The position numbers and the translations under genes are program-made. Source: Paratrimastix pyriformis (lineage: Eukaryota; Preaxostyla; Paratrimastigidae). Taken from it: a stretch of 64,000 nucleotides of DNA. The notes below the pieces were generated by a model, which saw only the letters and a program-made list of their open reading frames with translations, was not told the origin of the DNA and ran no database searches. Shown in pieces: positions 33,701 through 57,700 of this stretch. The stretch lies in NCBI GenBank assembly GCA_027972325.1, contig JAPMOS010000089.1:1-64000 (forward strand). Reading direction: 5' to 3'. Position 1 is the stretch's first letter; each line of letters begins with the position of its first letter.

Positions 33701-36700
33701 TCATCCTCATCCTCATCTCATATCATCATACCAGCCATGCCCTGCAAGCTGGACGGCGACTGTCTTCACGCCGGCAGCTGCGGCCCCAACGGCACCTGCC
33801 TCTGCTCCCCCGGCTGGAGCGGCCCCGCCTGCGCCCATCCCGGTCCGCTCCCACACCCATCACACACACACACACAAACTGACATCCCAGAATTTTTCTG
33901 AGGGGCCAACCAGCCCAACAAAGACGCGGTCAACCAGCGCGGACTGCCCGTTTTGATAGAGGGTCAAATCGAGGGGATTAATTATGGGACACCAAAACAA
34001 ATCAAACTCAACTGATCTCACCACTCCCCACCCACCCGGTGTTTGCAGGGCGACTGCACGACCAGCGCGGACTGCCCGTTTTGATAGAGGGGGTCAATCG
34101 ATTAATTATGGGACACCAAAAAAAAAAAAAAAAAGGATTGATAACAATCCCATATTTTTTCCGCCGGCTGACCTCACATATACCCCCGCTCCCCGATCCC
34201 CTCTGATCTCACCACTCCCCACACTCGTTGTTTGCATCGAGGGAATTACTTATGGGACACACACACACACACAAAAAAGGTTACAATCCCATATTTTTTT
34301 CCGCCGGCTGACCCCCACTTATACCCCCGCTCCCCGATCACCTCTGATCTCGCCACTCCCACTCACCCGTTGTTTGCAGAGGGCGACTGCACGACCAGCA
34401 CGGACTGCCAGCGCGGTGGCGCCTGTGTCGGCGCGGCCCCCGCCAGGACGTGCCAGTGCCCCGTCGGCTGGGCGGGCACCCTCTGCCAGACCCAAAGTCT
34501 GTCCCCCCTGAGAACTTATATGATGTGATTTGGGCACAAGAGAGGTTCGTGAAGAAGACCAACATCTCCATTTCACCACCGATTTCCGACGCTTTCGGCG
34601 GAATTCTGTCTTTCCAGAGCGAAATTCGCTCAATTGACCACAGGACTGGACTTCAGAACTGCAGATTACTGGACGATGCAAGAAAAGCAACAGACCATTT
34701 CCAGACATTTCCACGCATTCCGATTGAAATTTTATGAGAGTGCCGAGAAGAAAGTGGGGCACAAAAACTCACACCTGTGTCCACAATGTGGAGTTGCCCC
34801 TTCACAGTTGGAAAATTTGTCAGTGCAGCAATTCCAAATCCTGTTCCCCACAAAAGTGGCGCTGCGTTACTTGCTGAAAACTTCATAAATGCAAGGATGG
34901 CCGAGCGGTCCAAGGCGCCAGTTTAAGGTACTGGTATCTTCGGATGCGTGGGTTCGAACCCCACTCCTTGCAAATGATTTTATTCCAAATATATTTTCTC
35001 TCTTCCCCCGACGACACACAGCCCTGTTCTGCCCGACCCCAGCGCTTGGCCCCGCAAAAACGGTTGAGGCCGGCTGTCTGCCTGGGGCCCCCATCGGGTC
35101 CCTGTGCACGGTCGGGTGTGCCTGGGGGTATATACCCACCGGCAACGGGACTGCCGTCTGCACCAACCGGACGGCCCTGGGCGATGCGGCGTATGTGGGC
35201 ACCGGCTTCGAATGCTCACGTCTGTGTCCCGTCATCATCACCTTCTTTGGCATCACCATCATCATCACCATCATCGCCTCCCACCCCCACCACACTCACC
35301 GCTCACTTCTCGCTTCCCCTTGTGTTTTGATACAGAGATTAATTTCTCGACTCATCATCATTTTGTGAACCCAAGAGACCCCCCCACTTGTCACACTTGT
35401 GTTTTGACAAATTTCTCGACTCATCATCACTTTTGTGATACCCTTTGTGTCCCCTCTGTCATGAACGCCCCCCCACTCACCACGCACCACTCATGTTTTC
35501 AAATATTTTTCGACTCATCATCATTTTTGCTTCCTGATCGCGCCCCCCAGCGGCCACCTGCCCTGCCCTGGCCCCGCCCGCCCCCCTGGAGGTGGCCCTG
35601 GGCTGCACCTCGGGTACCCCCCTCGGGTCGGCCAACTGCACGGTGCAGTGCCCCTGGGGCTACGCCACCACGGGCGACGGGACGTACACTTGCAGGCCCA
35701 GTGGCCCCGGGGCGGCCACCTTCCAGGGCGGGTCAATGAGCTGTGCTGGTCTGTCCGAGCATCATCATCATCATCATCATCATCATCATCATCATCATCA
35801 TCATCATCATCATCATCATCATCATCATCATCATCATAATCATCATCATCATCATCATCATCATCATCATCATCATCATCATCCAATCATCATCATCCAA
35901 TCATCAACACCCTCATCCAATCATCATCATCGTCATCATCAGCATAATCATCATTCCAGTCATCATCATCATCCCCCCCAATCATTATCACCATCATCAT
36001 TCAGTCATCGGCATCAGCAAGGGGACATCGACTTTTTGACCAACCCATCAACTTGCCTTCGAAGGCTTTTTTATTTTCTCACACTTCCTCTCTTCTCCTT
36101 GTGCCCAGCCTTGTCCTGTGTGGCCCTGGTCCCTGACCCGTCCCAATTTGTCATCAGCGGCTGTGTGGAGAACGCGACCCTGGGCAACGTCTGCCAGATG
36201 GCCTGTCGGCCGGGGTACATCCCCCACGGGTCGGGCCTCTTCGTGTGCCAGGGCACGGGGCCCCAGATGGTCGCCTATGTGGGCGACCTGCTCTGCGAAG
36301 GTCCGTGTTGTGCGCATCGTTTTGGGCGGGAGTGCCCCTCCGAATAATTATGGGATCGTCCGAAAAAACAAATCATGGGATTGACGTCCCATAATTTTTT
36401 GTTTCCCTGCCCCCGACCACCTCCCCCACACCTCCAGCCGTGACCTGTCCGGCCCTGGAGCCCGTCCCACCTGCCCTCGTGGTCTCAGGCTGCGGGGCTG
36501 ATGCTCCGCTGGGCAGCCCCTGCCGGCTCGGCTGTCCCAACGGGTACGCCGCCACGGGCAGTGCCGACTACCCGTGTGCTGGCACTGGGGTCGGCACAGC
36601 CAATTACACCGGGGGCTCCCTGGCCTGTACTGGTCTGTCTGCCTGCTCCTGCTCCTCCGCGCGGAGGAAGATATGTGAGGATGTGGGACCTCATGGTTGT

Positions 36701-54700: not shown

Positions 54701-57700
54701 CGGGTTATCCGCCCGCACACTCCATTGCAGTCAAAATTTTTAACTGCATTTTTTTCAACTTTTTTGTTCATATTCATGTTCCCCATCATTAAAAACCCTT
54801 ACTCGGTGATTTTTATGACTATCTGCATGATGGCCGTTGAGGGCCCCCTTTGTACAACATCGCCATACAAAGGGGGCCCCATGGTGGCTCAACGGCCATC
54901 ATGCAGATAGTCATAAAAATCACTGAGTAAGGGTTTTTAATGATGGGGAACATGAATATGAACAAAAAAGTTGAAAAAAATGCAGTTAAAAATTTTTGCT
55001 GCAATGTGATTGAGTCGGATTCCCTATAGAAAATCGAAAAATGTGACAGACACCATTTTCATATCTCAAACGATAGCCCACACATGGGGCACCACGAAAC
55101 GTGCCACGGGGTCGTCCGCTGATGGACGGTTGGGGAGATATGAGGTCGACAAAGTGTCATTTCTTAACAAATCGGATAACTTATGGGATACAATAGCGTC
55201 GCGGGAAAAATTATGGGAACCCAAAAAAAGTTGGTTCCGGGGGTTTCCCCCCATGGCGGAAACGATGGCGGTGTTTATTTTGCTCGCTGACGATCTTGCC
55301 ATCTTGCCACCCGCGGCGGAACGAAATGTTTGGCTCTGGCTTCCCCGCGTAGGTTCAAATCCTGCTCGCGACGACTGTTTTTTCCTTTTTGTTCTGCCCG
55401 TACGTCCGGTCAAATAATGGGGACCACCCCATGCTACAGTTGTTCATCACCGGCCCGCTTAGCTCAGAATGGCAGAGCGCTAGACTCTTAATCTAGTGGT
55501 CGTGGGTTCAACTCCCACAGCGGGCGTTTTTTCACCTCCATTTTCCTTCCCTTTTCCGCAGTTCCGGCCGAAGACGGGCAGCTCGGTGGACGGGGTGTTG
55601 ACCCCGGGGGGCACCTTCCATCCCACGACGGGCCACTGGTCATCATCAGGCTCAACCCCGGTTACAGCCACATTCGGCGCCCATCCGACACTCGGCTCCA
55701 TCGCTGAGGACGAGCAGGTCTGCCCCCGTCTGATGATGCCGAGTGGGCGAGTGGGCGTGCTGGAGGTGATGATGACTGGGGTGGTGTTGCTGTTGGTGGT
55801 GTTGGTGATTGAATGACTATGACTGGAGGATTGGGTGATGGGTACGTATGATGATTGGATGTTGATGTTGATGTTGATGGGGATGATGATGATGATGATG
55901 ATGATGATGATGATGATGATGATGATGATGATGGGCTTTTTGACTTGTTGATCGTTTAATTAAAAATTTATTCTCATCCTCGACAATCTATGATCGGCGC
56001 GCCTGGTCTCGGCACTTTGAAAATTTGGAAATTTGGAGGCTTTTGACTTTGTTTATTCACTTTTTGAATTCTCTCCTTTTTTTTCTGTGGCAGGCGCGCC
56101 TGGGGCTGACCCCTGAGCGACTTTCGCGGCTGGGCGAGCAGGATCTGAGCCGGGCCGCCGCCGAGAAGGAGGACGCCATGAGCGAGGCGGTCAGTGAAGA
56201 GTGCAGTTCAATCCGCTCAATCCCACGCAGGTCCGCCAATTGTCCAGTCATCGTCATCATCATCATCATCATCATCATCATCATCATCATCATCAGCATC
56301 AGCATCATCATCATCATCATCATCCTCCAAACATCATCACCTTCTTCTTCTTCTTCAACACCCACCACCACCACCACCACCACCATCATCATCATCATCA
56401 TCATCATCATCATCATCATCATCATCATCCATCATCATCCATCATCATCATCATCATCATCGCTCTCCCCTCCTCAGCGCCAGCGCGGTCTCCTCTGCGA
56501 GCGGCCTTCCGCTTTTGCGTCGCTCGACATCCTCCTCTGGAGCCGCCCTCTCCGTCCTTCAACGCCAGCCATCAACCACCTCCATGTCCGGGGCTGCGGT
56601 GGGTCCGCCCCCGCTGCTCAACCCGCCCCCACGACGGGCCACCGTGGACTCGGCAGGCACAACAACAACATCCTCGAACAATTCCCAGGTCCGGTGGCGG
56701 AGAGCGTGTGGGTGTGGGTGTGCTTGCTGTGTCATCATCATCATCAGCATCAGCATCAGCATCATCATCATCATCCTCCAGTCATCATCATCCTCCAGTC
56801 ATCATCATCCTCCAGTCATCGTCATCCTCCAGTCATCGTCATCATCATCATCATCATCATCATCATCTTTGCTTCACACATCATCATCATCATCATCATC
56901 ATCACCATCATCATCACCATCATCATCACCATCATCATCGGCATCATCAGCATCATCAGCATCAGCATCAGCATCATCCAATCATCATCATCATCATCAT
57001 CATCATCATCACCATCATCATCACCATCATCATCATCATCACCATCACCATCATCATCACCATCATCATCGGCATCATCATCGGCATCATCAGCATCATC
57101 AGCATCAGCATCAGCATCATCCAATCATCATCATCATCATCATCATCATCCGATCATCATCATCATCATCATCATCATCATCCAGTCATCATCATCATCT
57201 CTCCCACCCCTCCCACAGTCCACCAGCTACATCCGCGGTCTTCCCGAGGACGACGGCGGCCGCTCGAGCGCCCCGCCGCTCATGCGCTTCTCCACCGGCG
57301 TTCCCTTCGCCACCCCGGGCCCGCGCCTCGATGAGGATCTGGGCCTGGCCCCGCTGGAACTCATCCACACAGCCTCCGGTGCACGGATTTATGCAGATGC
57401 ACCCCGGCCGCCCCGGCCCAACACCATTGCGGCCGGGCGGGCAGGCGGGCCCAGGCTGCGCGGGCCCAGGCCCATGCGCTCGGTGAGTGTGGTGGGCGAG
57501 GGCGGCGGGATGGCGCGGGCGGAGGGCGGGCGCGCCGGGTATGCCGAGGAGGGGCAACAGAGGGTGCTGCCCGTGACCAGTGCCGGGGTCTGTGGATCAA
57601 CATCATCATCATCATCATCCGATCATCATCATCATCCGATCATCCAATCATCCAATCATCCAATCATCCAATCATCATCATCATCATCATCATCATCATC

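What the first reader, a model, noticed from the sequence alone, without database searches (positions are those of the whole stretch)
34891..55562. Five sense-strand tRNA genes, each parked 32-62 bp before an exon of one receptor gene
tRNA-Leu, Pro, Gly, Leu and Lys end 49, 32, 33, 62 and 35 bp upstream of exons 16, 27, 28, 33 and 35. All are in the same orientation as the host gene although introns average over 1 kb. The Pol III T-run of each tRNA merges with the pyrimidine tract of the 3' splice site. Chance placement would rarely give this. Possible meanings: tRNA processing coupled to splicing, tRNA genes as roadblocks or insulators, or a gene-family expansion that carried tRNA and exon as one unit.
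Basis: partly seen in the sequence, partly recalled or inferred. Interest (0 to 1): 0.92.

Follow-up and report, generated by a model that had tools for sequence, protein, structure and literature searches.

The report
tRNA genes parked at splice acceptors
In this single-celled flagellate's genome, many tRNA genes sit inside introns directly in front of the next exon, so that the stop signal for making the tRNA appears to double as part of the signal for cutting the intron out.

Summary
The genome (56 Mb) is very probably Paratrimastix pyriformis. Four intact sense tRNAs, plus a tRNA-Gly split by a 3.5-kb inverted-repeat element, end 32-61 nt before acceptors. Of 75 unique tRNAs sampled elsewhere, 38 have a sense exon starting 15-80 bp past their 3' end; random placement gives 6.0 +/- 2.3, maximum 16. 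In 36 introns with a sense tRNA, a run of at least four T follows within 15 nt in 36, and 29 tRNAs lie 19-70 nt from the acceptor; in 26 of these 29 the first AG is the acceptor. The four U6 genes found also precede coding sequence in sense, three within 41 bp, one at 113. Host genes are unrelated. Best reading: tRNA 3' end plus Pol III terminator acts as a ready-made 3' splice site, and sense copies survive where the next AG is the true acceptor. Placement is shown; mechanism is inferred; antisense tRNAs near donors are unexplained. Side findings: donors G|GTCYGT matched by an altered U1, and two inverted-repeat families that insert inside tRNA genes.

The parts
34890..34973 (+). tRNA-Leu (AAG), sense, 48 nt before the next exon (acceptor AG at 35020-35021)
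   Evidence: ARAGORN and Rfam; spacing
34974..35021 (+). T-run, pyrimidine-rich stretch and acceptor AG; next exon starts 35022 (boundary set by eye; the splice picker chose an AG 21 nt farther on)
   Evidence: sequence; sense coding called 35061-35229
45274..45345 (+). tRNA-Pro (AGG), sense, 32 nt before the next exon
45346..45377 (+). T-runs serving as terminator and pyrimidine tract, ending CTAG; next exon starts 45378
45606..45642 (+). 5' part of a tRNA-Gly (GCC) split by an inverted-repeat element (read by eye)
45643..49113 (.). inverted-repeat element E1 inserted in tRNA-Gly; arms 45649-46309 and 48447-49107, 98% complementary; interior largely CAT repeats; ends read by eye
49114..49149 (+). 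3' part of the split tRNA-Gly (first 3 bases CAT repeat the end of the 5' part), 34 nt before the next exon at 49184
51510..51593 (+). tRNA-Leu (AAG), sense, 61 nt before the next exon; shares about 60 nt of 5' flank with the first tRNA-Leu
51594..51654 (+). T-run and acceptor AAG; next exon starts 51655
53082..53104 (+). 5' part of a tRNA-Ser split by element E2 (read by eye)
53105..55337 (.). inverted-repeat element E2 inserted in tRNA-Ser; arms 53118-53442 and 54999-55325, 99% complementary (ends approximate, by eye; part of the tRNA anticodon arm seems to be missing)
55338..55373 (+). 3' part of the split tRNA-Ser, in the same intron as tRNA-Lys
55453..55526 (+). tRNA-Lys (CTT), sense, 35 nt before the proposed next exon
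55527..55561 (+). T-run, pyrimidine tract and acceptor CAG; proposed exon 55562-55717 is open by eye but not supported by the coding model

Best explanation
In this genome (very probably Paratrimastix pyriformis) many tRNA genes are nested in introns of unrelated genes, in the sense strand, with their 3' end directly before the 3' splice site; the four U6 genes found also lie in sense before coding sequence. The two genes share signals: the Pol III terminator T-run is also the pyrimidine tract, the branch region falls at or near the tRNA 3' end in many cases, and the next AG is the acceptor. I propose that a tRNA 3' end plus its T-run works as a ready-made acceptor. A sense copy elsewhere in an intron would create a premature acceptor and be purged, while a copy whose next AG is the true acceptor is tolerated or kept. 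Pol III would make the tRNA and stop in the T-run before the exon; Pol II would read through and the spliceosome would remove the whole stretch. Shown: placement, strand bias, T-runs, first-AG rule, T-rich tracts, and protein matches that continue across the tRNA introns of three host genes. Inferred: Pol III use, branch point at the tRNA, and selection rather than targeted insertion.
For: 38 of 75 unique tRNAs end 15-80 bp before a sense exon; null 6.0 +/- 2.3, maximum 16 in 2000 simulations; a sense exon comes next in 56 against 32.6 +/- 4.0. 10 more sense tRNAs have another tRNA between them and the exon. 29 of 36 introns with a sense tRNA have it 19-70 nt from the acceptor; T-run of at least four within 15 nt in 36 of 36. 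The first AG after the tRNA is the acceptor in 26 of 29; 13 of 29 hold no A that is at least 15 nt from the exon and more than 5 nt past the tRNA. At -30 to -20 the 29 introns are 61% T against 26% in the 139 introns without tRNA; T/(C+T) at -17 to -3 is 0.54 against 0.34 in the 67 better-scored introns without tRNA, p = 1.7e-4. Further set: 11 of 19 unique tRNAs meet tract, AG and coding criteria. Protein continuity: a dynein-2 fragment has no gap at its three tRNA junctions (Glu, Gln, Leu), GH31 and ABCD none at one each. U6: coding called 16, 23, 41 and 113 bp past the 3' end, 4 of the 4 found.
Against: 13 of 75 tRNAs face an antisense exon and 8 of these 13 lie within 80 bp of it, on the donor side, which the premature-acceptor argument does not predict (as a count, 8 is not above the 6.9 expected). 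8 of 75 sense tRNAs lie more than 80 bp from the exon with no tRNA between. For isotypes other than Gln and Ile only 10 of 33 fit directly and 6 of 33 are antisense and close. In the further set 8 of 19 do not meet the criteria, and in two of the 11 that do (L104, L109) the antisense coding score is higher than the sense one. One U6 is 113 bp away, and for one (L060) no upstream exon was called. No RNA data. The gene models come from a home-made coding model. Selection and targeted insertion are not separated.
Confidence: 0.55

Rival explanations
1. Targeted insertion: new tRNA copies (reverse-transcribed precursors ending in U, or moved DNA) are preferentially inserted at pyrimidine tracts, for example because the U tail pairs with the A-rich strand there. 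Placement then reflects the insertion site, not selection.
For: Matches to the window tRNA-Leu mostly end 0-14 nt past the tRNA and start within about 10 nt of it, roughly the size of a primary transcript. Sense orientation and a T-run at the junction fit priming at a pyrimidine tract. One Leu unit lies before acceptors in unrelated genes.
Against: U6 copies carry a conserved upstream block and so are unlikely to be copies of the RNA alone. The shared Leu unit of three loci includes a 30-nt invariant block upstream. The C-rich tract of ordinary introns is not simply left in place downstream. It does not explain antisense tRNAs near donors.
Confidence: 0.22
2. Splicing-coupled tRNA production: the tRNA is cut from the Pol II intron by RNase P and RNase Z, and its place before the acceptor helps processing, as recalled for intron-encoded box C/D snoRNAs.
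For: Sense bias (56 sense, 13 antisense among the 69 of 75 with a downstream exon in the locus) and a narrow distance range.
Against: All 36 introns checked keep a T-run of at least four after the tRNA, as an autonomous Pol III unit would. U6 with its own upstream block shows a similar layout. Antisense copies exist.
Confidence: 0.1
3. Intron creation: insertion of a tRNA or snRNA gene into an exon made a new intron, the T-run supplying the acceptor side; later growth on the donor side left the tRNA at the 3' end.
For: Some introns are little more than the RNA gene: seven single-tRNA introns of 155-206 bp; in L059 the U6 promoter T-run starts about 25 bp after a donor read by eye.
Against: No orthologous positions were compared. 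Introns with and without tRNA have the same median length (345 and 342.5 bp), and 144 of the 170 introns called hold no tRNA, so introns here do not in general depend on one.
Confidence: 0.08
4. The tRNA and the following exon were duplicated together during expansion of the sushi/EGF receptor; no general rule.
For: The two Leu introns of the window share 155 aligned positions at 95% identity, and both follow an exon that looks EGF-like (the second supported by Pfam, the first by eye).
Against: The five window tRNAs are of four kinds. The pattern holds in unrelated genes elsewhere.
Confidence: 0.02

Closest known systems
Intronic tRNA genes of Caenorhabditis elegans (PMC4999229, passages read)
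   Same: Many nuclear tRNA genes lie inside introns of protein-coding genes.
   Different: There the share in introns (44% of 609) does not differ from chance and 56% of the intronic ones are sense. Here there is a sense bias and a narrow placement before the acceptor.
nimtRNAs, mitochondrial tRNA look-alikes in human introns (PMC7722341, abstract and passages read)
   Same: tRNA-shaped sequences in introns that affect splicing in reporters.
   Different: They derive from organellar tRNAs; the cloverleaf promotes splicing, most strongly when placed near the donor. Here these are nuclear tRNA genes with Pol III-type T-runs at the acceptor.
Intron-encoded box C/D snoRNAs of vertebrates (recalled, no call)
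   Same: A small RNA gene at a preferred distance upstream of the branch point or acceptor in a host intron.
   Different: Those are Pol II-made and released from the intron; here T-runs and U6 promoter-like blocks suggest separate transcription.
Introner-like elements (PMC4457414, abstract and outline read)
   Same: Repeated units associated with introns in many genes.
   Different: No common intron unit was found here; what recurs is the tRNA with short flanks, and intron gain was not shown.
Dada DNA transposons (PMC3706591, passages read; PMC8869645, search listing only)
   Same: DNA elements that insert inside tRNA genes, like E1 and E2 in this window.
   Different: Dada has 6-7 bp target duplications and, in the Dada-U6 and Dada-U1 families described, no terminal inverted repeats; families in Perkinsus keep to one tRNA type each. 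E1 and E2 have long inverted repeats, duplications that read as 3 bp, and several tRNA types per family.

Membership tests
Nuclear tRNA genes | tRNA model match | tested here: met
   (the window Gly and Ser are split and are not found whole)
Nuclear tRNA genes | Pol III terminator (T run) just downstream | tested here: met
   T>=4 within 15 nt in 36 of 36 introns with a sense tRNA
Nuclear tRNA genes | transcribed by Pol III | not testable with these tools
   no RNA or ChIP data
Intron-nested genes | coding exons on both sides join in frame | tested here: met
   protein matches without a gap across three tRNA introns of a dynein-2 gene and one each of a GH31 and an ABCD gene; the other tRNA introns rest on the coding model
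C. elegans-like intronic tRNA placement | placement not different from chance | tested here: not met
   38 of 75 against 6.0 +/- 2.3 for sense placement before an exon; the share of all tRNAs in introns was not measured
Intron-encoded snoRNA-like processing | RNA released from the spliced intron, no promoter of its own | not testable with these tools
   U6 copies carry a conserved upstream block, which speaks against it for U6
Introner-like elements | whole near-identical introns at many sites | tested here: inconclusive
   tested for tRNA-Leu only: 2 of 39 other matches share more than 20 nt of 5' flank with the window copy
Dada transposons (for E1 and E2) | 6-7 bp target duplication | tested here: not met
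   flanks read by eye give 3-bp duplications at seven insertions (E1: Gly, Lys, Glu; E2: Gly, His, Leu, Thr); the others are ambiguous or have one side only
Dada transposons (for E1 and E2) | no terminal inverted repeats | tested here: not met
   arms of 661 nt (E1) and about 325 nt (E2)
Dada transposons (for E1 and E2) | Dada-type transposase | not tested
   ORFs of the two window copies were only listed and not searched; other copies were not read

The most novel reading that the evidence does not exclude
Throughout one eukaryotic genome Pol III genes have become the 3' splice sites of the introns that carry them: the tRNA 3' end supplies the branch region and the terminator supplies the pyrimidine tract. 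Intron recognition and tRNA gene termination then depend on the same bases, and moving a tRNA gene moves a working splice acceptor.
Probability: 0.35. Interest if true: 0.93.

Novelty: new variant of a known kind. Interest (0 to 1): 0.85.

Why it matters
tRNA genes in introns are known, but in C. elegans their share in introns is at the chance level and their strand nearly balanced (PMC4999229, passages). Here placement before the acceptor is tight and recurs in unrelated genes, and it links two machineries usually treated as separate: Pol III termination and 3' splice-site recognition. If the shared-signal reading is right, the genome is a natural experiment on how acceptors arise, on Pol III units that lie in the path of Pol II, and on how tRNA copy number can grow without breaking genes. 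The same genome has a recoded U1/donor pair and elements that land inside tRNA genes, so the spliceosome, the tRNA genes and mobile DNA may have changed together. I found no report of this placement: the searches listed none that I recognised as one (titles and starts of abstracts; most subscription papers are not held), and the genome paper has 'tRNA' four times in its main text, in the passages shown only for enzymes. For the U1/donor change, (no paper) listed none.

Tried and rejected
Chance: rejected. tRNA-model artefact: tRNAs score well over the cut-off in most cases. Exon+tRNA duplication as a general cause: rejected, hosts unrelated. False exons: rejected for three host genes by protein matches without a gap at the tRNA junctions; the exon after tRNA-Lys in the window remains unconfirmed.

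A first coding model trained on unmasked sequence was drawn to trinucleotide repeats and was dropped; the masked one, trained on both strands, was used. My splice-site picker misplaced some acceptors: Leu1 in the window (set by eye instead), and by eye L043 and probably L018, L051 and L053, which I left in the counts as picked. The tract comparison sets 29 unfiltered tRNA introns against introns filtered by score, with a picker that rewards T over C in both. The antisense, donor-side placement was checked as a second rule: 8 against 6.9 expected, no excess in count, though 8 of the 13 antisense cases are close. The branch motif of ordinary introns came out degenerate, so the branch point could not be placed. 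5S genes were tried as a further Pol III class: 5 of the 6 fetched (of 13 matches) lie in repeat-rich stretches with no coding called within 190 bp, and one divergent copy lies in a probable intron about 49 nt before an AG. U1 genes lie on the donor side rather than before acceptors. U2 genes were located but not fetched. An 18S search for the species did not complete.

Rows dropped: 80 ARAGORN hits reduced to 75 unique (overlapping loci); the window's tRNAs left out; L108 is identical to L107, so one search counts 19; of the 63 tRNA places, 40 were fetched with flanks, one lies in L035, 20 were fetched as short 3' flanks and two not at all. The genome search itself scored only 63 of 1695 first-look candidates. 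The sample was picked by tRNA model score and by a Leu match, not at random: 42 of 75 are Gln or Ile.
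Full report
What was checked. The window is contig C484:1-64000 of a 56.06-Mb, 495-contig genome held without a name. Their 3' ends lie 48, 32, 61 and 35 nt before the next exon. A tRNA-Ser, split in a similar way by a second element, shares the intron of tRNA-Lys (by eye). Window exons match the sushi and EGF families of Pfam. The exon after tRNA-Lys is the weakest: the coding model did not support it.

Which organism. N-myristoyltransferase pieces from locus L009 have their best named relative in Trimastix, at 61% identity; an unnamed protein reaches 72%. 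The published P. pyriformis assembly has 633 scaffolds, 56,627,582 bp and an N50 of 276,605 bp (PMC10703272, abstract and passages read); a contig here is 276,605 bp long (C399). I take the genome to be P. pyriformis, perhaps with short scaffolds left out. This is inference: the 18S was not obtained.

Sample and test. I fetched 20 loci of 9-10 kb and 20 of 1.6 kb around tRNA hits and used the six loci outside the window that came with a Leu match. I trained a masked coding model. Among 75 unique tRNAs outside the window, 38 have a sense exon starting 15-80 bp past the 3' end. The null, a random position in non-coding sequence of the same locus with random strand, gives 6.0 +/- 2.3, maximum 16 in 2000 simulations. 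A sense exon comes next in 56 against 32.6 +/- 4.0. The other 37 are: 10 sense with another tRNA between them and the exon, 8 sense beyond 80 bp, 8 antisense within 80 bp, 3 antisense beyond, 2 antisense with another tRNA between, and 6 with no exon downstream in the locus. Without Gln and Ile, 10 of 33 fit directly. A further 20 tRNA 3' flanks (19 unique) were read: 11 of 19 meet criteria for tract, AG (19-75 nt) and coding that I set after looking at the output; two more (L098, L111) are plausible; in two of the 11 (L104, L109) the antisense coding score is the higher one.

Intron anatomy. In 36 introns outside the window with a sense tRNA, the last such tRNA lies 19-70 nt from the acceptor in 29 and farther in 7; some of the 7 look like mis-picked acceptors, which I did not correct in the count. 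A run of at least four T starts within 15 nt of the tRNA in 36 of 36. In the 29, the first AG after the tRNA is the acceptor in 26, and 13 hold no A that is at least 15 nt from the exon and more than 5 nt past the tRNA, so a normally spaced branch point would have to lie in the tRNA or its first trailer bases. The tract is T-rich (61% T at -30 to -20) where the 139 introns without tRNA are C-rich (26% T, 46% C); T/(C+T) at -17 to -3 is 0.54 against 0.34 in the 67 better-scored introns without tRNA, p = 1.7e-4. This suggests that the terminator has not merely been placed before an ordinary acceptor.

Are the introns real? The dynein-2 fragment of L016, joined across introns holding tRNA-Glu, -Gln and -Leu, aligns to a cytoplasmic dynein 2 heavy chain (PDB 4rh7) without a gap at those three junctions; gaps of two residues inside an exon and five at a junction without tRNA occur elsewhere. 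A GH31 enzyme (L017) and an ABCD transporter (L019) match without a gap across their tRNA-Gln introns.

Not only tRNA. Four U6 genes were found, with 47 of 1903 first-look candidates scored. In all four, sense coding is called downstream, 16, 23, 41 and 113 bp past the U6 3' end, and an upstream block is conserved; in three a sense coding segment is also called upstream, in L060 none. Of 13 5S matches six were fetched: five lie in repeat-rich stretches, one divergent copy in a probable intron. The eight U1 matches (all below the Rfam cut-off, E up to 2e-10) do not sit before acceptors: three have a sense coding segment ending 86-98 bp upstream, and two more a candidate donor by eye.

How copies move. 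Matches to the window tRNA-Leu mostly stop within 14 nt of the tRNA; 2 of the 39 other matches share more than 20 nt of 5' flank. Those two, the second window copy and one in a USP7-like gene (named by eye), share a 30-nt invariant upstream block with the first. The same cassette therefore lies before acceptors in unrelated genes.

Mechanism. A tRNA 3' end and T-run resemble a branch region and pyrimidine tract. I propose that a sense copy makes a working acceptor at the next AG. Copies in mid-intron would then be harmful and copies at the true acceptor harmless or useful. The closeness of antisense copies to donors (8 of 13 within 80 bp; sequences) is not explained by this. Targeted insertion at pyrimidine tracts remains the main rival.

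Known relatives. In C. elegans 44% of tRNA genes lie in introns, not different from chance, 56% of the intronic ones sense (PMC4999229, passages read). Human nimtRNAs promote splicing but are mitochondrial look-alikes with the strongest effect near the donor (PMC7722341, abstract and passages read). Placement of vertebrate box C/D snoRNAs before the branch point is recalled, not read. I found no account of this architecture in the searches listed under Why it matters.

Side findings. Donors are G|GTCYGT: near exon ends GTCCGT, GTCCGC and GTCTGT are the commonest complete hexamers (45, 35 and 22 in 248 windows), and they make up 106 of 170 picked introns, with a matrix set to favour them. All eight U1 matches start ATACAGACCTTG, which pairs with AAG|GUCUGU; the usual AUACUUACCUG is recalled. 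The oxymonad Streblomastix has A, U, G at positions +3 to +5, in agreement with GUAUGU (PMC1501061, passages read). Elements E1 and E2 lie in tRNA sequence in 5 of 5 and 7 of 8 copies whose flanks I read by eye, window copies included; in some E2 copies only one side is tRNA or was fetched; searches list more matches than were sampled. Three-bp duplications are clear at seven. This differs from Dada elements.

Changes made on checking. The U6 statement was narrowed (three of four within 41 bp), part boundaries of the split tRNAs were corrected, and counts against the reading were added.

Noticed in passing
L067-L074 and donors in L009-L028: All 8 U1 matches start ATACAGACCTTG and the donor consensus is G|GTCYGT: a recoded U1/5' splice-site pair. 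Possibly the more surprising finding of this genome.
   Followed up: partly
window 45643-49113 and 53105-55337; L075-L094: Two families of long-inverted-repeat elements insert inside tRNA genes of many types (5 of 5 and 7 of 8 copies read by eye), with duplications that read as 3 bp at seven insertions.
   Followed up: partly
L057-L060, L067-L074: U1 and U6 share an upstream block: usually a T-run, then a motif like GGCCGTCCCATAATTTTTCC, a likely snRNA promoter. CCCATAATTTT-like sequence also recurs in introns of the window (by eye).
   Followed up: no
L066: A divergent 5S copy lies in a probable intron about 49 nt before an AG and keeps 10 nt of 5' flank of other 5S copies.
   Followed up: no
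L014:5872-6899: A palindromic arrangement of tRNA-His and tRNA-Thr pairs in one intron.
   Followed up: no
window 1-6668: Tandem array of a GC-rich unit of about 200/396 bp at the contig start, 98% matching.
   Followed up: no
window about 22200-25900, 27600-32500, 60000-64000: Three closely similar GC-rich stretches with long ORFs, probably copies of one mobile element (by eye).
   Followed up: no
window 16880-16952: A borderline tRNA match (29.6 bits, cut-off 29) on the + strand, not close to a called exon.
   Followed up: no
window introns; flanks of 80 tRNA hits in L009-L056: Introns are full of CAT/ATC trinucleotide repeats; CAT is also frequent in the 12 nt before tRNA genes (48 of 80 hits, overlaps not removed, against 9-20 of 80 in the three windows farther upstream).
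   Followed up: partly
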